From Acholoe squamosa (taxonomy: Eukaryota; Annelida; Polychaeta; Phyllodocida; Polynoidae), in NCBI GenBank assembly GCA_949317995.1, contig OX439037.1, positions 19,208,324-19,272,323 of the forward strand: a stretch of DNA of 64,000 nucleotides, in the 5' to 3' direction. Positions 32,685-52,000 of this stretch are shown here, piece by piece; within the stretch, counting starts at the first letter, position 1; each line of letters begins with the position of its first letter. Below the pieces are notes generated by a model that was not told the origin of the DNA, ran no database searches, and was given only the letters and a program-made list of their open reading frames with translations. The position numbers were made by a program, and so were the translations under genes.

Positions 32685-34074
32685 CGGCATTTCCGTAAAG
32701 TCCACTGCCTTAGGGTTTACAACTTTACTGATGCCGTGATATTGAAGTACTCCTGGGGAAAAGAGAAAAATGAATAATACAATGAGAGGGGGAAGTAAGT
32801 ATTAATTGGGAGGGGAAGTAGATTTGTATCTTTGGGGCTGAGTGAATTTGCAGCCCTGAGGGACCAGATTGATTTCAACCACTTTGCTGAACGAATATAT
32901 GTATGCATACATCCTAATGCAATAGTGGTAGCATTATGAAAAGTTTATTTCTATTTACTGCCTTAAATACCAGAGTCGGTTCCAATGCAGCCGGACCAGA
33001 TGTCTGGTCGGTCTTTATGAATAGTTTTCAACTTGCAGGACATCAGTGAGGTTTTTATAAGCGCCGGATAACAGTTATTTGGCCATGAGGACCGAGTGTC
33101 CTGTACATTCTTTGAAAATACATTCATAAAGAGTGATGCATATAACCATTTCTTGATTTAACTCACCATCGGCACCGATGGGTCCCATAGCAGTCAGGAG
33201 GTAGTACTTATTGTTGGCCAGGTCAGTAAGGAGGTCTTTATCAGCTAGTGGCAAACCACTGACCAGACTTTTAGACTTGATGTAGGAGAAGTGGCAGGTG
33301 ATCCTGCCATCCACATACTCCCCAGACATGGTCTCATGTAGACCTAATGAGGGCTGTAAGATAATGATGGTGTTAGACAGGAAGGTTATGGTGCAGGTTA
33401 GGAATTCAGAATGAATCCAAATGGAATATAACTGCTGTAATAGGTCCATATTACCTGTTGTAATGCATTACGTATTTGATGTGGTTTATACTAGAACATG
33501 AGATGGACCGCCAACCATTGTCTTACAGAAAGTGCAGAAAGAAACTATACAACATAAGACCTCAGATCCGCCCTATAGAATCTCATTAAATCCAAGTTGT
33601 CATATGACCCAGCACTTACTGGGGAAAGGAACCTGTTGTCTCGTTCCTCATTCACAGCAGACTTAATGGTCACTGCTGCTGCATTGTCTCTCATACAATC
33701 CACAGTGGCCGATGGAGACTGGTGATGGAAAAGGGATATGTATTATATTCTAAAAATGTATTATTCATACTGGTATATCCTAGCATTCTTACCATCTTAC
33801 TATCTTCTAAGTAGAATAACAGTGATAAGTTGATAAAACTTTACTAAATGAGTTTTCAGCAATCAACAAAAATGCAAATTATGATATTTTAACATACCAT
33901 GGTTCCTGTTGATGAAAAGCCAATGGCAAACCACTTGTCTGTTACTGGCATCAAACCGGCAGCTGTAAACTTCACATAATCCCCATCTAATTTCCATCCA
34001 ACTTCTACATCACAATCATTACCAACACAGTTCTCAGGATACCTGAAGCAGTTCTCCTCTAACTCACACACAAC
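32685..34074 (-). other. DOMON unit 4 (four exons, last one shortened)
   Basis: Exons of 177, 99, 187 and 68 nt. Contains [34 protein letters not shown] and [16 protein letters not shown]. The last exon ([22 protein letters not shown]) ends in a CCG|GTGAGT donor about 50 nt earlier than in other units, so at least one more exon should follow towards lower coordinates. A weak candidate after TTTGTAG at about 31837 codes only seven residues before a stop. Confidence 0.8.
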
Positions 34075-37000
34075 CTGTTTGTAGAAAACGAAAATGATTT
34101 TGATCAGACTTTGGACATATTCTCTGTTTCGATGTCCGAGGGGCATGTTTCTGATGGTGTGAATTGAATTTCTAGGTAATAATCATAAACATGTCTTTGT
34201 GATGCCTGAGCACTGGCAATTGCTGTGTGGGAAAACAATTTACAACCACACAGCTTTCCATACCAGTGAATTGCTAGCTATCTTATATACTTATACCTTT
34301 GCCTATTGTGAGTTGTGCATAAATAAGTACATCCACTCACTGCTCTTGGTTGCATTTCTTGTAACACCTTCTTGTCATTTGAAGAGTCCATATGTTCGGT
34401 GAAGTTTATCAGCCGGGGAATGACAACCTTGTTTGTCTTGTGATATCCAAGACGTCCTAAGGACCAAAAGAGCGATATTACAAAATGTGCCACAAATTTT
34501 ACAGTCTATACACTGCAATATATATGGACTAATCGCATACAGTATTAGGGTGATTACAATCATTCATATGCAAGGAATAAAATCATTCATATTCTGAGAG
34601 GGTGCATTAATATCATGAACAGAATCCCCATAATTGTTATGGGTGTGTCTGAACAATAATATAGATGTTCAGAAGTAGGTGAAAGGTTGATTGAAACTTG
34701 AATTACATTCCTTTTGATTTAATCGTGAATTAGAGTTTAAAGAATCATTGATGTTATCACCTTGATCAGTGACAGGTCCCCTGGCAAACATTAAGTCATA
34801 TTTCTGGTTCTGGAGATCCGCCAAAAGGGCTGCATCACCAGCCTGTGATTCCCTATTAGCACCAGCAAGACTTTTAGTTCTCACATAAGCGAAGGAACAG
34901 GTTATCAAGCCATCCTCATATGAACCAGACTTGGTTCCATGAAGACCCAAAGTTGGCTGGAATGTACATTTTCAATAGCAGTTAATGGTCAACAGAAAAT
35001 AATTGGACTAAAACTCTCTTTGGACTTACATGCACCTTCTAGGTCACACATTTTGGAAAAATCATTATCATACAGAAAACAAGCACTTTTGTAGTGTTAT
35101 CTTATTCACAACAGAATATCATTCTACTGCTAGAATTACATGTGTATACATTGATTTAATCACTAGATCTTCAAATCATGAGGTAATTGGCCAATGGTTA
35201 TTTTGTGACCATGTTCCATGGTCAGAGGGAAGATGTAAGTTGCAGTATTACCGGAGATAGGAATCTGTTGTTACGTTTGGTTCTGTTTTGTTCATTGTGA
35301 GCAGATTTTATTTCAACCTCGTCTCCGTTTAGTATGCAGTCAACAGTTGCAGAAGGGGACTAGAAAAGAACAGAAGACATTTTATTTTGAAGTGGTTGAG
35401 TATCTGGAGAGTTACGTGCAGACTAGTTACAGATCTTTCCTCCTTTTATGCCACTTTATCGCATAAAAGTTTGTCATTGTGACTGGGGAATGCACAAAAG
35501 CTACCAACTTAATCACTACTTAAACATACTTCTGTATTAGAAAGCTTATTGGATAAGTGCTACTTGATCTGAGAAAAAAACAAACTTACCATGAGACCTG
35601 TAGTTGAGAATCCAATCGCCAGATACTTCTCATCAGCTGAAAGTTCTCCCGAGACCAGAAACTTGACATAATCTCCATCCAACTGCCATGTAGCACTCAC
35701 TATGGCATTTCCATCAGGGGATTGGAAGCAATTCTTTTCATTTCTACACACACTCTATAAAAAGACACACGTTTATCTCAAAATGTATTGCCAATTTGTA
35801 ACTTGACCGTTTTTTCTTTGGCTGGGGTTCTGCTAAAGTCATTTACATTTTTATGAGATGTTCAAGGGATAACATTATAAACGTACCTTATGGAAGGCAA
35901 GTTAAGAGATCTGGAGCTTATTTCAAAACATCCTGGGATCGCAACCCCAGCGATCTTAGTGTAGGCACATATCATAAGACCTGGCTGGTCTACCCTATCT
36001 AATGCAGTGGTTGCAGGCCTGTCAAGAATAGCAAGTCCTGGGATCACTTCACTATTCCTTTTCCAGCACTAAGATCACTGCGATCTTACTGAAAAAATTA
36101 CATAGTGGTTTCACCTGAGTACAAGAGCACTTACAGGGAACACTCCTGATGGAAAGAGTGAATAGCCTGCTGCATACATATATAGAGGGGAGGGAGGCCG
36201 TTTGCTGAGTGTCCTAGAGGGCTCTTAGGGCTACTCATGCGTTAAGTGCACTGTAAGGTAATTCTTCTTTTCTCTCTCTTTGTCCTGGGGGGAGGGCACA
36301 ATGCTTCTAATAGGCAAGCATAAATCATACATTCATGGGAACAACTCTTGAATACTGTACTGGGGTCAACTGCACCCTGTGCTCTTTTGTTAGCCCATAT
36401 GGGGACGGGGAACGATGGTATAAACACTGTTGTGAAGAAGAGTGGCTCCACAGCTATTCCTTTATTTTGGGACTCTTACCCCTGTGCCCAGTCAGTACTT
36501 CTTGGAATAGTGTAAGAGGGCTGAGGCTAAGATCAATGCGATCTTAGTACTGGCTAGGAAATCTGAACGCAGTCTAATCTTAAGATTGCTTAATAGGATA
36601 AGGTAGAATAATTCCTAAGATCGCTGGGGTTGCGATCCCAGGATGTTTTGAATTAACCTCCTGTGCCCAGTCAGTACTTCTTGGAATAGTGTAGGAGCGC
36701 TGAGGCTAAGATCGATGCGATCTTAGTGCTGGCTAGGAAATGTGAATGCAGTCTAATCTTAAGATCGCTTAATAGGATAAGGTAGAATAATTCCTAAGAT
36801 CGCTGAGGTTGCGATCCCAGGATGTTTTGAATTAACCTCCAGATTCTCACTGTAGACTTGTAGTAAAGCCTATGACTTTTCCCCTGCCTATAAGGTGCGC
36901 CCTGAATTCAAAGTAGTATAGTATGTATCGGAACGGGAATATAGCTGACTACAGGATATTTAATACTCACTGTGGATGCAGCCAATCCATTTGGTCACAT

Positions 37001-40000
37001 GACCTGGACCTCCGTGGTGCATACCCATATATGGTCATGTGACCTTGACCTAATTAGGGGTGTGCATGCCCATATATGGTCATGTGACCTTGAGCTTGAC
37101 CTAATTAGGGGATTACCCCGGTCATGTGACCCCTCATTTGCATAATAGGCCACCCTCCCTTTACCTAATTAGGGGAACAGGACTATAGCTAACTACAGGA
37201 TGCAGCCAATCAGAGGCCTCCATTTGGTCATGTGACCTGAACTCCCTGTGGTGCATCCCCATATATGGTAATGTGACCTTGAGCTTGACCTAATTAGTGG
37301 TGTGCATGCCCATATATGGTCATGTGCTCCATATGGTCACGTAACCTGGACCCCCGTGGTGAGTTCCTTATTTGGAAAATAGGCCACGCCCCCTTTGGCC
37401 ATGTGACCTACACTCTGCATGGTGAGCTCCTTATTTGGAAAATAGATCACACCCTTAGCCAATTAGAGGCCTTCATTTGTGACCTGATTATGTAAATGGG
37501 GGTTGGTTAACCAAGTAACCCTTTTGTTTGTAAACAACACATGATTTAACTATGTGGTTTTTTTTGGGGGTAAAAAAAAAGTTTTTTAAAATGGGGGGGC
37601 CCTTGGGGTGGGGGCCCCTTAAAATAGAGTGATTATGTTGATGATTATGTTGCCCAAAAAAAAAAAATCAATTAAATGGTCAGTATATCCGTCAGCTGTA
37701 GTTGCACCAGCATGGAATTCTCTAGCGTGAGGGTGATAATGTTCAACATCAGCAGGAGCAGCAGCAGTAGCACCTTCATCAGCAGAAGCAGCAGCACCTT
37801 CAGCAGCAGTAGCAGCAGAAGCAGCAGTAGGCACAGCAGGGGCTACACCACATGGGTTGTAAGCAAAAGCAGCTGCTGTAGCATCTTGAGCAGTAGGAAA
37901 AAAAGCTGAATCCTTGGACCTTTTCGTCTTCCTTAAAAACTGCAGCTTAGTAGGTCTTTTACTCATGGTGAGGGTTGAAGAGAAAGTGTGAGTGAATGAA
38001 ATTTTCTTTCTCCCTTATATACTCCTCTGGAGATAAGCCTCTTACTACAGTTTAAATACAGTAAAATCTCTTTATAACGAACTACTTGGGACAAGCAAAA
38101 TAATTCGTTATAAACAAATTTCGTAGTATCCAAATAAGAGAATTTATAGCCCTTATAACCAGGTATAGACTCTATTAAGGGGTTTGGGGGAAGTCCTATT
38201 AAATGCTATGGCGTCCCTCACAGGTAGGTGTTGGGGCGGAGAGTCCTGTTCAAAAGCTGTAGCCCCCCTCTGATGTACCCCCACCCCACCCTTCCCGGCC
38301 ATACTAGGGACAGGTAGGTGTGGGGGCAGGGTGGGGAGAGAAGTGCTATTCAAAGGCTGGAGGCCCCTCTGATGTACCCCCACCCTTCCCGGCCGTATTG
38401 GGGCAGGTAAGTGCGGGGGGAGGGAGAAGTCCTGTTCAAAGGCTGTGATGTAGACTAAAACTACCATAAGAAATACATTTTCAGTCAGAATTTGTTCGTT
38501 ACATCCGAATTCTAAAGCCCATACTTCGTTATATAAGGATTATTTAACTATAGAATTGTATGGTTATGATTAGGGACCAAGCATTTTGTTTGTTATAACC
38601 GAAAATTCGTTATAACAGGATTTGTTATAAAGAGATTTTACTGTAGATGAAAGGTGGCTTTTGGTTTAAGTCACCTACTAACAAGGGGAGGGGTAAAAAT
38701 TAAGGAATCTCATAATACCTTAACGAGCGAACCTTCCTTACACCTGTAAGTCGTACAGCTTCTAACTTTTTGTAAGCCCACCAAATACAGTTATCACAAG
38801 ACCTTTCCACCTGTTTCATGTCAACAGATCTAAAGATAAGTCGCTACACAGAATGCAAGCGATCACCCATAATCCCACCAAATACTCTTGTCACAGTGTC
38901 TTTCCTTTATGTTTTACTTTGATTTTTATAATCTCATAATGAGTGACATTGTCTTACACCTGTAAGCCACATTAAGATATTTATCACAGGTTCTAACAAC
39001 TGTAATCCTACCAAGATTTCTATTTTCAGCTGGATACTCCCCATAGATTCCTTAGCTCATTAAGTGTGGTTGGTCCCAGAGGGAAAAGATAAAGGACTTA
39101 AAAGGATTTTGATTCCATAGTCACAGAGATTTTTCCTCGGTCAGGTGTTTGTCTCCTCTTGTTAACCACCCCTGGTAATTATTTTAATTAGTAGAGCCGC
39201 CCTGTCCCTTGAAACAGGGGCGGGTTTACTAAAAATTAAAATATGAGTGAGGTCACGTGACCCCTATGTTTGTAAACAACACGAGGTGTAGCTACATGAC
39301 CCTTGTTTGTAATCAAGGCCCGGGTTAATTATGCAAATGAGATAGTGACCTAATTAGGGATTAGCAACCATTTTCACCTGCCGTTTGCTGTAGGCATCGA
39401 TCCCTTAGAATCATTAAGTGTGGTTGGTCCCAGAGGGAAAAGATAAAAGACTTAAAGAGATTTTAACCACTCTTTGTAGTTTTGTATACAGACTTTGAAT
39501 GTCTTAATCTCCTAACGAACCATAATCTGCTTATACATGTAATAGGTAGGTAGGTAGGTAGGTAGGTAGGCAGGCGGGGAGGTGGGTATGTGTCCACCAT
39601 TTCTGCTGTGTACCCCACACCTTTGGTAGTGAGTAATCCAATTAAAACACTTTGACTTTTCTCTTACAAGATTATATTTTCCCTTTGTTGTTAATCACCA
39701 CCTGTAGTTTTTGTATACAGACTTTGAACACCTTAATCTCCTAATGATCCATAATCCTCTGATACATGTAAGTCGTATTAAGGTAATTATCACAGTTGTT
39801 ACACCTGTTATCCCACTTTGATACACTTATTCCAAAAAGCATTTTTCCCTTTTTCATGTTGATTGATTGAGGGGTGGAAGGATCCAGGTGAAAACGGGAT
39901 TAGATCTTTCTCTCAATTATATAAAGAGTCCTGAAGGGCAGATTATGTCCGCTGTCTCCTTTGACAGCATCAGCGGCAGCAGGGGCAGCAGAAGCAGAAG

Positions 40001-43000
40001 CAGAAGCATGAGTAGAGGTAGGAGTATGTGCAGTGGTAGGAGCAAGTGCAGCGGGAGCACCAGTATGCGCATGTGCAGCAGGAGCATGTGCATGTGCAGC
40101 AGCAGCAGCAGCAGCAGTTAGTACAACAGCAGCGACAGTAGTAGCTAGTAGTAAGAGCAGCAGCAGCAGCAGTGACACCAGCAGTAGCAGCAGCAGCAGC
40201 AGTAACAATAACAGCAGTAGAAGTAGCGTAGCAGCAGCAGCAGTAGCAGCAACAGGTGTAGTAGCAACTGCAACACCAGTAGTAGAATAGTAGTTGCAGG
40301 TACAACAGCGTAGTAGGTGTAGGAAGTAGCAGTAGTAGTAGTAGCAGCAGCAGCAGGAGCAGCAGTACTAGTAGTAGTAGTAGTAGTAGTAGCAGCGCCA
40401 GCAGCAGTAGTAGCAGAATCAGCAGCAGTAGTAGACAGCAGCAGTAGTAGTAGAATTAGACTGCAGTAGATGATCGTAGTAGTAGTAGCAGTAGTATTAC
40501 TAGTAGGCTTAACAGAGAAAATACCAGTATTGCCCCCTGTAGGGTACTTGGAGAACTACTAGCACCCGGGTGACACAAGTTTGGTAATAACAGAGCAGGA
40601 GTAAGTTGTGGGCGAATGGTCTGAGGTAGGTGGGTTGTGCACTCTTTTGTATCTCGCAGTAGGAACTCCAGCAGGTAGGTAGCAAGTTGCAGTCATTTAC
40701 CTACCTTTCATACATATGTGTGATGGACAATGTCTATCACAATAAACCCTTCATTTCCAAAAGGTAAATGTGTTCTTGCCCCCATTCATTTATATGTAGC
40801 AAAACTGCAAATTATGCTTGGAAGAAATGGTGGTTGAGAAAGTAGTTCATCATTGCCCAAAATTAGAGGTATGTCAGTTACACTTTTTTGTCGTTAACAA
40901 AATAGTTTTACCATAAATGTCTGAATAGATTTTGATGTCTTGGTTACTGGATTACAGCTTCCAATATGTTGATAGACACAGTTCCATTCGTGCATCATTC
41001 TATTAGCAACGTGAATGGAAAATTCTATTATGATATTTTATTGGAATATGGTGAACCATTAAAAAGAGCTAGACATGGGAAATATGCTATTTTTTTGAAT
41101 CTTTCAAAAAAGATTAACTATTTCCATAGTTATTCAGCTTTTTTGGTGCTTTTATCCACTATAGAAATATGTCAAAATTGAGTAGGATGTCTATGGAGCT
41201 ATAACATAGGGAGCTGACTGGTAGATGGACCATGAAAATATACCTCTCTAGGAATGGGGTCCTCCAGGGTTGACAAAAATTACAGCATGGTGATGTTTTT
41301 ACAGTTTCAGTCAAACTCCTTGACCAAGGCCCTTCCTCTTCAATATTAGTTTAGATTTACTGACTTTTCACTTCTAAATGATGAATGCTCAGCTTATTAA
41401 TGGCTCAATGTACTCAGTGAGAATATTTATAAATTTTATACCCTTGTTCCACTATCACTGACTTTAGACACATTACCTGAATCTGATACTTTGCAAATAC
41501 CACCACACAATATAATTCACCTTTGATTTTCTACTTATAGCACAGAGATTGTCTATATACTGACATGTAGGGTAAACCCCATCTATGTAACAGGCCATAA
41601 GCCTCTTAGGTAATTCCCTTTCCTAGCCCAGTACTTGTTACTGAACACCCAGGGGTTGTGATGATCATGGGTGGTGACAGGGGAGTCTCACTACTATATA
41701 CACAAACCTTGGGGTTCCCACCCTTGAACATACAGTAAAGTGTACCACATATCTAAATAAGTTATACTAGTGATAGTATAGTTAGTTAGTATTAAGACAG
41801 TGTTTACAGATCTGTCCATTATTCACTGAGTTATGAGGAAATTAGCTAAGGAAGGTATGGGAAGCATGAATACCAGACACTTAGCCCCTTATTTATGGCC
41901 CCACTTACGTTGCTACATTCTATATTTTTTTATATATTCCTTATCTTCTCAATGTGTTTGAACCAAGTAACTGTGGAAGTACCTTATACATTGAACTTCA
42001 ATAAGAATAGGAATAGTCTGGCTGGTGTGCTTGCTTTTGAGTAGCCAGGTAATGTTAAATCTAATCCTGGTGTAGATAGGGGTACTGGGTACTAAAGTGT
42101 GTGTTCCAGTAATATTATCTACAATTGTGGAGGAGAATTGTTCAATACTGGTACTCACAGATTGAGACGCTCATAAATTTACAAAAAAGTGATTTAGACA
42201 CCCTACTAGACTCACTTAACTCCCTACTGGTAGGTAAGCTCCCTCTAAATTTAATCCCATGAGACAATACAACTAGACCTCAATAATCTATCAGATGCAC
42301 TACATAATGCCCACAAGGGACCCAAAGAGGCTACCCTTAAAATATGTTCGTTTCCTGTCCAGAGGGTGGGATTTTTCAGACTCATGAGGGAGGAAGGGAA
42401 ATTTTTTTTTAGGAAAATAATTTTTAATTGTCATGAAAATTTTAGGCCGGGATGGTCTGAATTCGCCATCACGTTCTAAGAAATCCACAGGAAACAAAAA
42501 TATTTCTAAGGGTGGCCTGATATTAAGTGTACCCATAGGTTACTACAACAAGAGGAAAGTGCATGTGCACTGGCAGAATCAAAACAAGACACACGTCACT
42601 GTACCCATACCCATCAAACTGGGGAAAAGCATTTACTCTATTTATAGAACAGAGGTATTCCCGATTTGCTTTGATACAAGCAACGTCTACTCCACAGAGT
42701 ATACACTGGTACAGTCGCTACCAACTTTCATAACCATGTCCATATCTTACTCACATTACATTGAGATGAACCACACGAACATGAATATGTGTGAAGCTGG
42801 TAATTTTATAAGTTGTAGTCTACCCCTCCCTATGTTATTTTCCCGATATATTTAAAAAAAAGGGAATCACTGTGGATCATGGTTTCTCCTACTTTACCTC
42901 TACTTGACACACACGTCTTGTGTTTGTCACTTTACAAAAGTCAGCATTTTTCTGCTTTGTGGGGTTTTAACATCTCCATCACCTACTTGTACTGTTTTTG

Positions 43001-46000
43001 AGATGTTCCATTTCCTACAGTTAATCTTAAAAAGTATAGCTCATCTCAAACCATACCAACACGAACACTGTTACGATATTGTCTGGCATGGAGCTTAAAG
43101 CTGGTGTAAAACAGTTGTCTAGTTCCCATTAACCTACCACTGTGGCAACATTTTGGAAACCCACCTTTAATGTTTCTGGTGTAACCATAGCAAGCACCCC
43201 ACCGTCTTAAGTCTACCAAATTTCCACCGTTTTAAAACCCTACATAATCAAAAAATATTAGCACTGATTAAGGATGTTCTCACCCTAAAGAATACTGCAT
43301 CAGGTATCCATGATAGATCAATATTGTCCACAGACTCAATAACACACTTCTCGGATATCACCTTGAGTTTTCACCATGGTCACTTGTTGTCACCAATCAT
43401 AGGCGTCCTTTCCTGTGTGCTCACGTGTCGTGTGCATGTACATGCATCATGTGACCATACACCTGACATAGCTCATCACTCTTCACAGTACACCGATCGT
43501 GGTAGAACCACAATCTTTTTTTGACTAAACTGAAGGAGATGATTAAGAACGTCAACCATGACTGGTTATTGACCACACCTTTCATCTGCCATTTTGACAC
43601 TCAATAATGATCCCCAAGTAAAATGAGTCTTTCTTCTCAAACCACCAAAGGATAAATACCTCCTGTTTGATCCTACACTGGCTGAGAGGACAACTGACAC
43701 TTTTAATGGTGACTTTTCCTTCTTTTTTGACAATAAATCCCAAGATTCATGTGATGATCATCCTTGGCTCTGGGTCGGACATAGCACCGGATAGGTTGGT
43801 GATGATGCTGATTTGGCGATGCCCCTTTTCCCATCCACAACACCATCCTCCTACAGAACCTCTTGCCCCCCCAGGACCCCACTTACACCCCAAGTCTCAA
43901 TAACATATCAGCTCACCCCATAACCACTTACGATAACATCAAGTGACAACAGTAGATAAGTTCAGCTAACACGTTATGCACCGGTACTATCCAAAGAACG
44001 CCAGCCACAGCGCCTGGTTGGACTTTTCCCGCCAGTCGTGTCAGCCCGGCGCCATCTTGAATATGCATTGATGTATCAAAACTGACGTCCGTCATGGCCA
44101 TCACCATGGTAACCATCCATTTGGTGACGTCCTCAACTGTTGCACAAGTCATTTTTTTTTTTTTTTTTTTTTTTTGGACTTGCTCATTGCATTAATGAAC
44201 TGCTATGTTCATTTAAATAATGCTATAGAGCAGAACAACAACATTGACACGTGTTAACACAACTTTTTACTCAGTAAACTTTTACCTACCTTAGAAACCA
44301 TTTTGTACCCCTGGCTCCACTACAGTGAACACGATTTGCGTAATACTGGAAATAAAAACAAATCTTTCTCTTTAGAACGGCAAACCAAACACAAAATTAA
44401 TTCAAAATTCCGAATTTGAGATGCAATCTTGATAAATTACCCACCTTTTGTCCGTCATTGTGATGGTGAGGTAGAGGGTGACGCTGTTGGGGAAAACCAA
44501 CTCTACCTCAAAAACCATGTTGACTATTGCATAACGTCTAAAAAAAATTTTCCTTTTATAGTGCACTGGCCCGCGCGTCGCGGTCCAAACTTTGAGATGC
44601 TATCTTGATAAATTACCCACCTTTTGTCCGTCATTGTGATGGTGAGGTAGAGGGTGACGCTGTTGGGGAAAACCAACTCTACCTCAAAAACCATGTTGAC
44701 TATTGCATAACGTCTAAAAAAAAATTTTCCTTTTATAGTGCACTGGCCCGCGCGTCGCGCTCCAAACTTTCGGCACATTTTTCGACCTTTTCAAAATTCC
44801 CGTGGTTTCAAACAACAATAACCATACATTACCCAAATCCAGTTATGCACCCATATACTCCCAAAAACAAAGGTGGGAGCACTTCTGAGCAATTATTCGA
44901 GCTTATAAAGCATAAATTGATACACGTTCTCGCCATGACGGCTCAGCACTAGCGCAGTGTCGCCACCTGGTGTGTTACCCATGAACTAACCAAAGTGTCT
45001 CTGGTAACCAAACCCGCGCCTTGTCTAGGTCTATAGAGCTCTATGTATTGTGTTTGTCGAGTTGATCAAATACAAATTTAACCTTGCTATCTTTTCTGTA
45101 TTGACCGAGACCAAACTTGTGAACCATAACAGCTGTTCTACGCTAACAAACGGTCTCTATTATGTTGTCTTTTATCAAAGGTCTACTTTAGATGAGACAC
45201 CACTTGCTCGCTTCACCCTCTTTTATCCAACACCATCACCACTCTCATCCTTTTAATTTTTTTATTTAAAAAAATAAGGGTGAAATAAAATAAGATGTAA
45301 TTTTTTTTATTTATGAAAAATCTCATTTACATAATAAACCACCCCTAGGTGGTCATGCACCCCTTGATACTTTTATCCAAGTCTCTTTTTTCAACACATA
45401 AATTTATTCAAGGGTCATTTCATAGGTAGACAAATAGTTCAATATACACTACCCCCTCATCAGTTACCTAGTGGTTTTCTTAGGATGAATGTTATTATGA
45501 GTACAAATAACAAATTTCAACTTTTTTTACTTTGTTCACAGTTATATTATAGAATTTCTACTGGAAAGGTCTACGACCAGTAGAGGTCGGCGGAAAATGT
45601 CATTGAGAAACCGGGAGTCGAACCCGGGACCCTCCAACCTGCAGGCGGAAGCTCTACCGCTGAGCTACTTCCCCGTCTGACATTCTCTACCTTCCAACTA
45701 CATCTGGATCGGTATAATACACACGTAGGGGGAGCTACCACCGGATGCCAGCCCCTGGGGGCTGGGATCTCCAGAAACGGGGCTGCTCACCTTACGGCAG
45801 AGCTGGTCCCTACACTCCTCCCTACCTACAGGGGGTAGCTTATACCGGCTGACCAGCCCCTGAGGGATGGTGCAACCGGAACGGGGACAGATGGCATACC
45901 GCCATAGACTCACAGCCAGAGCTGGCCCCTACACTCCTCCCAACCAGCTTCAACCATGGCCAACCAGCACCAAGCATTCCTCCCAACCAGATCGATGGGC

Positions 46001-49000
46001 TTTATCAAGCAGTGTGAGGCACTCCTGACTTCCCAGTTGACCTACCACTGGTAGCCAGGATGACTGGAGTACCTTCTTCGGTGCCCCATCTGGCCATAGT
46101 GCATGGTGGGCTGGAGAGGAGTCCTCTGGTAAGCAGCGCCCGCCTTACAGCGAGTACGCGGCGAAGTTCCCTGCCATGGGACCTGCGGGACCCGAATTAC
46201 AGGTCCTGACCTCCTTGGGCCGAGCTAAGGCTCGGGGTAGAGGCCGCGGTGGAATCGAATCCACCCGAGCTCCCCCGGGCTACGGCCGAGGCCGGGGAGG
46301 CACCACAGTTGAGGGTACCCAGGTCCCTTCTGCAGGCGCTTCACCTGTTACTGTGCAGGCTCCTGCACCAGCAACAGCTACCACCCCATCCGCGGGCCCT
46401 CGGGTCCCCGTCATAGGACTGATAGCCAGTACTCTGTCAGGTCTTCAGGATCTGGATACGTTCGTCGACCATAGAGACGTGCGTACCATCGAGATCCAGA
46501 ATGACCTGATGGCTGAGTGGCAGTCTTTCCATCGCCAGAAGTCAATTGACTACTGGCGGACGATGACTGAAGCCACCTTCAATCTGGTATACGAGATCCA
46601 GAAGAGGGAGGAAGACAAGATTAAGGAGCAGGAGATTAAACGGGTCGAGGAAGCCTATAAATCCTGCCGAGAGAAACAGAGGGAAGCCGAGAAGCTTAAG
46701 GAGTTCCACGCCGCTGAGAACTCGAAGTACATCCATAGGTACAAGGAGGCAGACTTGAAGTTCTTCCTCTGCTTCGGCAAGCACCTGGATGACTGGGACG
46801 GCTCCGCGTCGTCTCTAGTCCTCCCTTCGGGTGCTGAAGCCGATGCAGCGGTGGACAGTCCCTCCGAGGGCATGGGTGCTCTGAGTCTACTCAGTGACCC
46901 GAGCACCGAAGCCCTTAAGCTACTTGCCACGAGCAGTAGCAGCAGCTCGGCTCCCACTACTAACCCGGAGCCAGCTGAGAAGATGGACACTGAAGACGAG
47001 CCCGAGGACTTGTAAGTGTCCATCTGCCGGTGTAACCTCACCAGTACCCGAGAGTACAGGCATACTTTATGCCAGAAGATTAACTTCTTAAAGGACTATT
47101 CGGATCCAACGGACTGGAATGACAACCTGCAGCTAAGATGGACGCCACCTGAAACATCTAGGGATTACCACACGAACCCGGGGCTCCATCTTCCCATCCT
47201 CACCAGGGCACAACATACAGCAACGTGGCTTGCCACCACTCGTTTGTTGCCGTATGGAGCTGCAGAAACCCGTCAATCCAGGTTCGCCGGAAGTAAGTAA
47301 CCTCCATATAACTTAACATATTTAAATACGTCTTAACTATAATAACTTTGTAACACTGTTACCCACATATACCAGCATAGGTTGATGGTGCATAAGGCAC
47401 CACCTCCTATTTATGTTATTATTTAGTTACTTCGGATTATATGCGACGATGCCTATTACTATGTACATATTATTTATAATGCCCCTTTAATGTTAAATAT
47501 TCTATATGACATTGTTATAATAGACTTACCTGTGTATATATTGTTATATAACTTTAACAATAGGTAATTAATAGGTAATTAACACCTACCCTAGGTAAAG
47601 TCTAGGGGGGGTGATGTAGGGGCCGGCATCATTGTATATATATTAGTGCGCTTCATCCGAGAGACGTGCTCGTGTGGTGCTCGTTCCTTCTATGCCAACC
47701 AGGTGTCACTTCGCGATACCCGTTTGGTACAAGAGGGGGCAGCACCATGCCTCGCGTCCAGCTTCTACTAAGAAGCCGGACGATCCGCAGAAGGGGACTG
47801 GACATGGTCCAGCCCAGACGTATGTTCTGAGACGTGAATAAAGGCCTACCCGAGCAGTAGGGAGTCTGGGGCTTTGCCCAACCCGAACTACTCGTGTTGT
47901 GTTGGTATCTTTAGTGATAAGCGAGCCAAAGAGCCACCCAACATATAAGTCGATACAAACCATTACACTTTTGTCAGCCAATACACGTTTATAATCCATA
48001 TTGAAAAGATATGTTATCAGTTCTTTTACATTCAGGGTATTGACAACGTCAAATATGGCACACACCCTTGTAAATTCATTCCAAATATCACCGACAAGCA
48101 TCCTGGAAAATACCCACTCTCCATACATAAAAATTAGTTCTTCCTTGTCGGAGTAGCATCCAAGATATTTAACCTGCGACTTATGGTTTTTATATCCATA
48201 ACATTCATCTTTTACTGTCCTATTAAACTTCCTGAGTAGTGAATAATGACATTAATAACCTGGCTTTTGATCGTTCCACAATTGTAGTAACCATTAATGC
48301 TTTAGCTCTCTCCCTCTTGGCTATCATTACGGCCTTCAAACAGTTTGACATCTTGAGAAGGTTTTGAGGTGTTATGTAGTCATTAATGCATACTCTATAC
48401 AGATGCATTGTGTCTGCCTTTTTGGATATATTTTTACCCCTCGACCTTTATAAATGAAAAAAAAATTAAAACATGATTATTTGAAAAAAAATGTAATGAT
48501 ACAAATTATTTTTGTCATTATTAAACATACATACAGTAAAATTCCTTTACAATGAAGTGCTTGGGACATGCAAAAAAATTCGTTGTAAACGAATTTCATA
48601 GTAACCAAACAAAGCCAGATAGAGGTTTACAAATCACCTCAACTCTAGTTTGACCTCTTTGGTCACCCAGGTGAGAAGAGATCTCCCCCCCCCCCCAGAC
48701 ACACAATAAGAAGGGAGGTGGCTGTAGATGTCCTAACACACAGCCCCTCACACCTCTCAGTTCCCCTCCCCCCAGCCTAGGTGTGAAATGAGGCGGTTGT
48801 AGATGTCCTGACACAACCCTTCACACCTCTCAGATCTCCCCTACTACTCTTGCCTGTGTATTCTGTACACTTTGATTTCCTTTGAAAATGTGTTTATGAC
48901 AAAATTATTTCGTTATATCCGAATTCTCAAGCCAAAACTTCATTATAAAGGGATTATTTTAATATAGAAATGTATGGTGATGATTTGGTACCAAGCATTT

Positions 49001-52000
49001 TGTTTGTTATAACCGAAAATTCATTGTAACAGGATTCATTGTAAAGGAATTTCACTGTAATACCTCATAACTCTAACTAATAGAATTACTTTACCACACA
49101 TGTGACCTTTCCTCTACGGGTTCAAGGTTATAAAATATGGTTATACTGGTAAACAAGGTAAATACTTACTGAAAAGAACCTAGATCCGTTGGAAAAGCTT
49201 TAACCTCGCAAACAGGCATCCTAGAATACATTGTTGATGATAAAGTGTCCTTTAGACTAGAGCGACAGACATATATATATACCCTTCATACTTTGTATTC
49301 TCACCTTACACTCAAAGTTTGACACGTTTTTTGCAGCTAACACTTGAAAGAAAAGTAGCATTTATTTTATCTCCCCTTAGCATGTTGCACACATAATGTG
49401 TGAATGCTTGCTGCAAACACATAACCCTAACCCTTACTTTAAAGGAGTAAGGTGGGTTTACTTACTTCTTTTTTTTTTTGTTTGGGCAAGCTTTTAGCTT
49501 GCTTTAAAAAATAAACTAATTTCCCCCCTATTTTAAAGGGCCCCTCACCCCAAGGCCCCCCACCCCACCCTACCCTAAGGGGCCCCCCACCCCAAGGGGT
49601 TCAGGTCATGTGACCAAATGGAGGCCTCTGATTGGCTGCATCCTGTAGTTAGCTATAGTCCTGTTCCCCTAATTAGGTCAAGGGGGCATGGCCTATTATG
49701 CAAATGAGGGGTCATATGACTGGGGTAATCCCCTAATTAGGTCATGGTCAAGGTCACATGACCATATATGGGCATGCACACCCTAATTAGGTCAAGGTCA
49801 AGGTCACATGACCATATATGGGTATGCACCATTGGGGGGTCCAGGTCACATGACCAAATGGAGGCCTCTGATTGGCTGCATCCACAGTGAGTAATATCCT
49901 GTAGTTAGCTATAGTCCTGTTCCGATACATACTATACTACTATTCAAGCAGAATTTTATTTAATATTTTTTTTTCATTAGGACGCAGGAGGATGCTTTAA
50001 TTCAAGCCTTATATATGAGCTAGATGATAGAGGAAGACGGTACGGAAATTCAATTCCCTTGGCTGGACCTTTGATAATTCCTTCTTTTCCTTTAAAAATC
50101 CTGCAGTGTCAGTGAAGTTCACCAACTCTGGGTTGACCTGCCTGTTTGCCTTGTGATATGAGAGCAGTCCTATAAGAGAACAGTGTGATTTTTGAAATAA
50201 TATGATGCACTGACAATATTATGAAGCAAAGTTTTCTTTCTTTTAATCAATGCACTAGATGTTAATAGTTCCAGACATTTTCAGTCAGGTACTCTAAAAG
50301 GGTGATTCAATTTGGTGTCAGTTTCATAGACTGGATGTGCAATGAATATGAAGTGAAACTTCTACTTTGTTGTTTGTATTGTAAGCCTGCCAAATTGCCG
50401 AAAATACATAGAAGGAAGCAATATGAACCTAAAGGATCTTCATAGCATAGTAGAAAGTGACTTTATTCAGCTACACATGACCACATGTGTCAAGTAATAG
50501 AAATTTACATGTAAATGAGAAAAAAACTATTTATTTGAATCTCTGATAACATCACTTTTGGTTCCACTATTGCAGATTATCATCTCAAAGATCTGGTGCT
50601 GTGCTCACCTTCAGCAGTGATAGGTCCTCTGCCCACAAGTAAATAATACTTCTGGCTATTGAGATCAGCCAAAAGGTCAGCATCACCAGCCTGTACTGGA
50701 GTTGCTAGACTCTTAGTCTTGACGTAAGAAAAGTGACAGGTTATCCTTCCATCTGCATATGATCCAGACTTGGTTTCGTGAAGGCCTAATGTTGGCTGAA
50801 ATCAGTGGAAAGTAAAGCTTCATAGAAATAGGCAATGATAACTAACAGGATTGAGTCTGTCATCATAAACCACTCACTCCAGGTGAACCTAATGAAATAA
50901 GCTTTGACTTTTCTGTTAGTTTTATCCTTCTGAAAAAAACCCCAACAAATTTGACTTTCACAAATGATATCACTCCACCACTTCTATGAGATTACAATAG
51001 ATCATTTAAGTTTAATCTAATTGGGGTATTGACTCTCGTCAATGGCAAATGTTGCCCATAGGAAGAAAAAGGAATTAAGTTGAAATATTACCGGACAGAG
51101 GAACCTGTTGTTACGTTTGGTGCTATTTTGTTCATTGTGAGAAGATTTGATTTCAACATCATCTCCATGTAGTATGCAGTCAACAGTTGCTGCAGGGGAC
51201 TAGAAAGGAGAAAAAGACATTATGTTTCAGTGGTTGGAAAAGTCAATTCCATAATTCCTTTGCAATGTAGTGTTTGTTATACCACGATTTCTGGCTTACA
51301 CAGTGCTTTTTGGGGTCTATTCCCATCCACATATCTGTCGATATTGCACACCCTGTAGGCTGTAACTTCAATTTTGGATGGCGTGCGGTTATCCTGGATA
51401 ACAGCACGCCTTACATGGATAACAGCACGCCTTACATGGATAACAGCACGCCTTACATGGATAACAGCACGCCTTCCAAATCATATATTACATGTTAAAA
51501 CCCACGAAATTTTCCAGGCCAGGGTAGGGATCGAACCTGCAGTCTCACATCCCAAATCCAACTCCCTATGCTCTGCGCCACAGGGACTGACGAGATACGC
51601 TCGGTTCGAACCAAATCTGGATATGATACAAAGCCGTGTGCGCTGTCGCTGTCCGCTGCCGGGCGACGAGGTGTAGTATACATACATATAACCGCGAGAC
51701 GCCGTGAGCAGAGTAGGCGCGGTGGTCTAGCGGTTAGCGCTTTGCGCTCAGCCGTGAGAGGTACATGGATCGCCCCCCGGTCCGGGCGCATCTATTTTCG
51801 CCGTGTGCGCTGTCGCTGTCCGCTGCCGGGCGACGAGGTGTATTATACACAAACATAACCGCGAGAAACATCTTTTTTCGCCGTGTGCGCTGTCGCTGTC
51901 CGCTGCCGGGCGACGAGGTGTATTATACACAAACATAACCGCGAGAAGCATCTTTTTTCGCCGTGTGCGCTGACGCTGTCCGCTGCCGGGCGAGGAGGTG

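What the first reader, a model, noticed from the sequence alone, without database searches (positions are those of the whole stretch)
36912..49942. A 13 kb Polinton/Maverick-like element sits in an intron of the DOMON gene
The element has exact inverted ends beginning AGTAGTATAG, AG/CT termini, TIRs over 400 bp and a perfect ATTCAA duplication on both sides. Polintons are known for exactly these four features. The interior has compact convergent frames and TATA-headed genes, also virus-like. Recognisable polymerase B and integrase are missing, so it may be a decayed, non-autonomous or unusual lineage.
Basis: partly seen in the sequence, partly recalled or inferred. Interest (0 to 1): 0.9.

Follow-up and report, generated by a model that had tools for sequence, protein, structure and literature searches.

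The report
Gene-less passenger of a Polinton family
The 13 kb insertion is a gene-less passenger copy from a large family of virus-like jumping elements (Polinton relatives), whose gene-bearing members seem to divide their replication and integration genes between two kinds of element, one of which also carries cell-death-control genes.

Summary
The element is real: inverted ends at 36912 and 49941, terminal repeats of 342/354 bp (93% identical without gaps), ATTCAA duplicated on both sides. The 23-bp end occurs 2,469 times in the 1.48 Gb genome (control 0). AGTAGT...ACTACT ends with 6-bp duplications are a published Maverick signature.

The window copy has no recognisable Polinton gene. It belongs to a repeated non-coding subfamily: a 9.7 kb sister aligns end to end without two of the nested insertions, substitutions show no codon rhythm, and the longest ORF lies in a nested 2.4 kb insertion.

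Relatives with the same ends carry the missing genes, in two sets. Type I (complete copies 7.1-12.5 kb): BIR (IAP), Death, PC4-like, PolB, MCSC. Type II (5.3 and 6.4 kb): integrase, protease-like and penton-like ORFs, a diverged MCSC. None of the eight copies read has both PolB and integrase; the one close PolB-integrase pair found genome-wide is separated by an element end.

So this is a non-autonomous derivative of an unusual Polinton lineage, probably moved in trans. The boldest reading is a two-part Polinton that spreads IAP genes; deletion of an unsampled complete parent is not excluded.

The parts
36906..36911 (.). left target duplication ATTCAA
36912..37253 (+). left terminal inverted repeat, starts AGTAGTATAG; outer ~86 bp head shared with types I and II
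37619..37966 (-). 115-aa ORF; its upstream half and the start codon region (37757-38058) align with the MSRR gene start of type I relatives; decayed remnant or short gene
38059..38643 (.). nested insertion, absent from L049 and L054; by eye a MITE with ends like CAGTAAAATCTCTTTATAACGA (pogo-like by recall)
38644..38906 (.). intergenic piece that in type I relatives (L051, L056) lies upstream of the Death gene
39543..45572 (.). non-coding body shared with sister copy L044; the piece 43125-44120 is found at 40 scored loci, the window included
45573..47965 (.). nested 2.4 kb insertion absent from L044; holds the 279-aa ORF 46176-47015 and a tRNA-Cys-like sequence; by eye a piece of an LTR retrotransposon
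48532..49057 (.). nested insertion absent from L044, by eye a second MITE with similar ends
49588..49941 (-). right terminal inverted repeat, ends ACTACT
49942..49947 (.). right target duplication ATTCAA

Best explanation
The window element is a non-autonomous, gene-less member (type III) of a large Polinton lineage. Shown: same ends as gene-bearing relatives, 6-bp duplication, repeated non-coding body, relatives that carry PolB (type I) or integrase (type II). Inferred: integrase made by type II elements recognises the AGTAGT ends and joins the linear DNA to a target cut with a 6-bp stagger; PolB made by type I elements copies any DNA with these ends; type III copies are carried along in trans. 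This copy entered an intron of a minus-strand DOMON gene and later received at least three insertions that brought it to 13 kb. It probably arose from a type I element, since it keeps the intergenic region and gene start next to the Death gene.
For: 2,469 ends genome-wide, control 0. Of 15 end pairs read, 8 have an exact 6-bp duplication (one is GGGGGG and says little) and 4 match at 5 of 6 bases. End motif as published for Mavericks. Sister L044 aligns with 7,209 of 8,106 bases identical, substitutions 285/303/309 over the codon phases. Body piece at 40 scored loci, 13 of 40 within 20 kb of one of 40 listed ends, 0.04 expected. PolB pieces in six relatives, integrase in two. PolB copies lie within 15 kb of a listed exact end in 5 of 7 cases, 0.09 expected. 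Type I remnants in the window copy.
Against: 3 of 15 end pairs have no matching duplication (L044, L053, L057/58), among them the sister copy L044 and the type II copy L053. No protein of the lineage hits the window by tblastn, so its descent from type I rests on DNA similarity of short pieces (74-95%). Integrase copies near listed exact ends are few (2 of 12). Movement in trans was not observed.
Confidence: 0.86

Rival explanations
1. A single autonomous Polinton that inserted here and lost its genes in place by mutation.
For: 7% divergence between the two terminal repeats shows some age; three nested insertions.
Against: The same gene-less body is repeated in the genome and aligns with L044 end to end; no codon-phase bias.
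Confidence: 0.05
2. A different DDE transposon superfamily that also makes 6-bp duplications, unrelated to Polintons.
For: Ends and duplication length alone do not identify a superfamily, and the window copy has no enzyme gene.
Against: Relatives with the same ~86-bp end head carry PolB or a retroviral-type integrase; end motif as published for Mavericks.
Confidence: 0.03
3. On the two gene sets: types I and II are two classes of internal deletion of one complete parent (about 15-20 kb or more) that carries PolB, integrase and capsid genes together and was not in my sample.
For: Both types share ends and an MCSC gene. No major capsid or ATPase gene was seen, so other gene-bearing forms probably exist. 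The genome-wide lists hold only 2-6% of the candidates: if sampling were independent, only about 4 joint PolB-integrase places would be expected even if every copy were complete.
Against: Six type I copies share one gene order and two type II copies another, the latter with integrases only about 65% identical over the core, so both layouts are old. 0 of 8 copies read hold both genes. The only PolB-integrase pair within 20 kb (1 of 72) has an exact end between the genes.
Confidence: 0.55

Closest known systems
Polinton/Maverick elements (polintoviruses)
   Same: AGTAGT...ACTACT ends, 6-bp duplications, terminal repeats of hundreds of bp; PolB, rve integrase with chromodomain, and a protease-like frame in relatives
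   Different: Window copy has no genes; described Polintons are 15-20 kb with these genes in one element (PMC4028283, passages); here PolB and integrase lie in different elements in all eight copies read, and BIR and Death genes are part of type I
Canonical Polintons of the same genome (PF03175, open frames up to 1,582 aa)
   Same: same superfamily of PolB; PolM and PolC1 pieces match them (28% over 176 aa)
   Different: 0 of 16 on contigs 1-2 lie within 15 kb of a listed exact end of this family (0.21 expected by chance)
Bidnaviruses
   Same: a Polinton-derived PolB in a virus whose genome is in two segments (PMC11071308 passages; PMC4061559 listing)
   Different: single-stranded parvovirus-like viruses, not integrated TIR elements with integrase; analogy only
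Burro retrotransposons of planarians
   Same: mobile elements that carry BIR and other apoptosis-linked domains (PMC6431247, passages)
   Different: LTR retrotransposons, not Polintons

Membership tests
Polinton/Maverick | terminal inverted repeats with (AGT)2//(ACT)2 or (AG)3//(CT)3 ends | tested here: met
   window ends AGTAGT/ACTACT; motif from PMC8097293 passages
Polinton/Maverick | 6-bp target duplication | tested here: met
   ATTCAA in the window; 8 of 15 pairs exact, 4 at 5 of 6, 3 without match
[quoted passage not shown]
   none in the window copy; present in six relatives with the same ends, recognised through homologs with PF03175 (1 of 4 rescanned homologs), not by Pfam directly
Polinton/Maverick | rve-family integrase in the element | tested here: not met
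   none in the window copy; present in L053 and L059; homolog P0121 passes Pfam's cut-off and matches PFV integrase at 2e-11
Polinton/Maverick | adenovirus-like cysteine protease | tested here: inconclusive
   not in the window; L059 frame matches Peptidase_C48 at 0.0056, below cut-off
Polinton/Maverick | major capsid protein, penton, FtsK-like ATPase | tested here: inconclusive
   penton-like frames in type II judged from recalled motifs only; Pfam, PHROGs, PDB and a structure model (pLDDT 35) gave no support; no targeted search was made for major capsid or ATPase
Polinton/Maverick | size 15-20 kb | tested here: not met
   window copy 13.0 kb with nested insertions, sister 9.7 kb
Non-autonomous derivative of a Polinton lineage | shares ends with gene-bearing members, lacks their genes, is repeated | tested here: met
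Non-autonomous derivative of a Polinton lineage | mobilised in trans by Polinton proteins | not testable with these tools
   needs an experiment or polymorphic insertions

The most novel reading that the evidence does not exclude
This lineage is a two-component (bipartite) Polinton: type I elements carry PolB together with BIR and Death apoptosis-control genes, type II elements carry the integrase with protease- and penton-like genes, both are marked by the same terminal repeat and keep an MCSC gene, and gene-less type III elements such as the window copy ride on both. Type I would then spread single-exon IAP (BIR) genes as cargo in hundreds of copies, an alternative to retroposition for intronless IAP expansions such as that of the hard clam.
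Probability: 0.35. Interest if true: 0.87.

Novelty: new variant of a known kind. Interest (0 to 1): 0.62.

Why it matters
If a Polinton genome can be divided, that gives an integrated counterpart to two-segment bidnaviruses and shows how a virus-like element can become a community of parts. If BIR genes are standard cargo of such elements, the intronless single-BIR IAP genes of the hard clam, which its authors attribute to retroposition while noting DNA transposons enriched around IAP genes (PMC7831173, passages), could be checked at once for flanking Maverick ends. A family with 2,469 recognisable ends, gene-less 10 kb passengers included, also shows how far this machinery can shape an animal genome.

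Tried and rejected
Individually decayed Polinton: rejected, since the gene-less body is repeated. The 279-aa ORF as an element gene: rejected, it lies in a nested insertion. Canonical Polintons of this genome as close kin: PolB match only 28% over 176 aa, and 0 of 16 near listed ends (0.21 expected by chance, so weak on its own). Pfam alone did not recognise the PolB pieces; that assignment rests on homologs and on PolB motifs that I know from recall. Structure prediction of the penton-like homolog failed (mean pLDDT 35), so no fold search was made. PDB searches with the PolB, protease and penton-like pieces gave nothing useful. IMG/VR: no exact copy of the 23-bp end, and no relative of the PolB piece or of integrase P0121 by the tool's test. 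PHROGs matched only the integrase homolog. The bacterial promoter/terminator scan was near chance and is not informative for an animal element.

Papers: PMC4028283, PMC11071296, PMC11071308, PMC7831173, PMC8905726, PMC6431247 and PMC8097293 were seen as passages only; all others as search listings only. The listings show no title or abstract start that reports BIR or Death genes in Polintons or a two-part Polinton. Searches returned mostly unrelated papers, and subscription journals are not held, so this is no proof of absence.
Full report
OBSERVATION. The element runs from 36912 to 49941. Its outer 23 bases are exact inverted copies, unique in the window with up to 3 mismatches and absent from 100 shuffles. 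ATTCAA stands on both sides. The terminal repeats align over 342 and 354 bp, 314 of 338 aligned bases identical, so 'exact over 400 bp' is too strong; there are further internal repeats. Minus-strand frames with DOMON matches lie on both sides (33889-34179, E 2e-5, below Pfam's cut-off; 56062-56289, E 2.8e-8), so the intron claim is supported, though no transcript was seen.

FAMILY. The 23-bp end occurs 2,469 times with up to 2 mismatches (1,267 forward, 1,202 reverse), against 0 for the pattern read backwards. Only the first 100 places, exact matches on contigs 1 and 2, are listed. I fetched end pairs from that list and one pair on contig 13, and one further locus. Of 15 end pairs, the window included, 8 have an exact 6-bp duplication (one is GGGGGG, which says little), 4 match at 5 of 6 bases and 3 do not match (L044, L053, L057/58). 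The outer ~86 bp are alike in nearly all of them; one end of L044 and one of L057/58 share less, and the window's left end aligns with type I ends over 27-77 bp only. Termini read AGTAGT...ACTACT; a study of vertebrate Mavericks gives (AGT)2//(ACT)2 end motifs and perfect 6-bp duplications (PMC8097293, passages).

THE WINDOW COPY. L044 (9.7 kb) aligns with it from end to end, 7,209 of 8,106 aligned bases identical. The window copy has extra blocks at 45573-47965 and 48532-49057, and L044 has blocks that the window lacks; L049 and L054 lack 38059-38643. The longest window ORF lies in the first block. Substitutions fall 285/303/309 on the three phases, so there is no sign of coding. The piece 43125-44120 matches at 40 scored loci, the window included (1,152 candidates); 13 of 40 lie within 20 kb of one of the 40 main end places, 0.04 expected. 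The window copy keeps the start region of a type I gene (MSRR, 37757-38058) and the intergenic piece before the Death gene (38644-38906), so it probably came from a type I element. I call it type III. By tblastn no lineage protein hits the window.

GENE-BEARING RELATIVES. MSRR and MCSC are my labels for genes of unknown function. Type I: L039/40, L042, L043, L045, L046 and L051/52 carry PolB pieces, with the order BIR - Death - (divergent) - MSRR - PC4-like - PolB - MCSC; parts are missing or broken in some copies, and for L043 no right end was fetched. The five copies with both ends are 7.1-12.5 kb long. BIR (1.1e-16) and Death (4.6e-9) are recognised by Pfam in L056, a locus with two listed ends in the same orientation; the L042 Death-like frame scores only 0.061. 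PC4 scores 1.1e-4, below cut-off, in L051. PolB is recognised through 272 homologs, many with precomputed PF03175 (1 of 4 rescanned ones passes), not by Pfam directly. Type II: L059 (5.3 kb, exact ATCCCC duplication) and L053 (6.4 kb, no matching duplication) share the order MCSC - integrase - penton-like - protease-like - one more ORF. The integrase frame scores 6.9e-6 for rve, below cut-off; its 85% identical homolog P0121 passes (3.7e-8), has a weak chromodomain match (3.8e-4, below cut-off), and matches foamy-virus integrase structures (2e-11). 'Penton-like' rests on recalled motifs and 'protease-like' on a weak match (0.0056).

GENOME-WIDE LINKAGE. The lists hold only the best-scored copies. 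PolB-MCSC within 8 kb: 24 of 72, all same strand, 0.12 expected. Integrase-protease within 8 kb: 38 of 149, all same strand, 0.24 expected. PolB-integrase within 20 kb: 1 of 72, 0.29 expected. PolB-protease within 20 kb: 2 of 72, one of them the same C9 place, the other (C16) not examined. PolB-BIR within 10 kb: 14 of 72, 13 on opposite strands, 0.15 expected; MCSC-BIR within 15 kb: 21 of 150, all opposite; integrase-BIR: 2 of 149; protease-BIR: 1 of 150. Integrase-MCSC is only 1 of 149 and protease-MCSC 2 of 150: the MCSC query was the type I form, which is only about half identical to the type II form, so the MCSC of type II rests on L053 and L059. One search repeats these counts with a typing slip mended; none changes. 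The C9 PolB-integrase pair: L039's spacing would put a type I end near 3137888, and an exact end lies at 3137837-3137859, between the two genes. Within 15 kb of a listed exact end on contigs 1-2: PolB 5 of 7, MCSC 8 of 17, BIR 7 of 17, integrase 2 of 12, protease 4 of 19, canonical Polinton PolB 0 of 16 (expected 0.09, 0.22, 0.22, 0.15, 0.25 and 0.21).

HOW STRONG IS THE SPLIT. The lists are 2-6% of the candidates (72 of 3,426 PolB scored, 150 of 2,827 integrase), so under independent sampling only about 4 joint places would be expected even if every copy were complete. The split therefore rests mainly on the copies read: six with PolB, two with integrase, none with both, two different stable gene orders, and one end subtype (GTTAAGTACTGTTTATT) shared by type I L039, L042, L045, L046 and type II L053 (L042, L045 and L046 with small variants). 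Against it: few type II copies read, no major capsid or ATPase gene seen or searched for by profile, and one deletion event can found a whole class.

SELECTION. Pairwise dN/dS is below 1 in 33 of 34 comparisons of at least 90 codons (0.31-0.82); the exception is Death in L051 (1.24). BIR gives 0.44-0.67. Overlapping alignment pieces count some codons twice and stops were skipped, so the values are rough; they fit past purifying selection followed by decay.

MECHANISM. Shown: shared ends, 6-bp duplication, repeated gene-less body, PolB and integrase in relatives with the same ends. Inferred: integrase acting in trans joins the AGTAGT ends to a target with a 6-bp stagger, and PolB acting in trans copies the linear DNA. 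Whether PolB and integrase are divided for good, or types I and II are deletion classes of one parent, is open; I give 0.35 to the first.

KNOWN AND NEW. Polintons are described as 15-20 kb with PolB, integrase, ATPase and protease (PMC4028283, passages). BIR domains in mobile elements are known from Burro retrotransposons (PMC6431247, passages). In the hard clam 42 of 49 clade-1 IAP genes are intronless with one BIR exon, attributed to retroposition, with DNA transposons enriched around IAP genes (PMC7831173, passages), and a table gives Maverick 1.69% of that genome (PMC8905726, passages). Here the element's BIR frame has 1,081 candidates; 150 were scored, and the listed ones are 66-100% identical. 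I tested no clam and did not identify the host. The window element is filed as a non-autonomous derivative of a Polinton lineage, not as a Polinton, because it has neither PolB nor integrase.

Noticed in passing
G000, loci L009-L038: The genome also holds many canonical Polinton PolB genes with long open frames (up to 1,582 aa; 71 candidates scored of 871), several with identical scores, which suggests recent activity of other Polinton families.
   Followed up: partly
L056:1121-2519 (C1:3252680-3258800): A BIR gene and a Death-domain gene side by side next to an element end; two listed ends in the same orientation 5.9 kb apart and two identical BIR hits suggest a tandem duplication.
   Followed up: partly
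window 45603-45675: A tRNA-Cys-like sequence (minus strand) inside the nested 2.4 kb insertion.
   Followed up: no
window 39000-50000: GC skew is positive in the left part of the element (39-42 kb) and negative in the right part (42-50 kb), switching near 42 kb.
   Followed up: no
window 44415-44770: A tandem pair of 176-bp units, 98% alike.
   Followed up: no
window 39900-40560: A long imperfect trinucleotide stretch that would read as alanine-, serine- or leucine-rich repeats; parts of it match similar stretches in relatives.
   Followed up: no
L045 and L046 (C2:7492890-7500140 and C2:7620200-7627380): Two type I copies with the same flanking sequence in opposite orientation about 120 kb apart, so probably one insertion duplicated by an inverted segmental duplication; they may count as one insertion event.
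   Followed up: no
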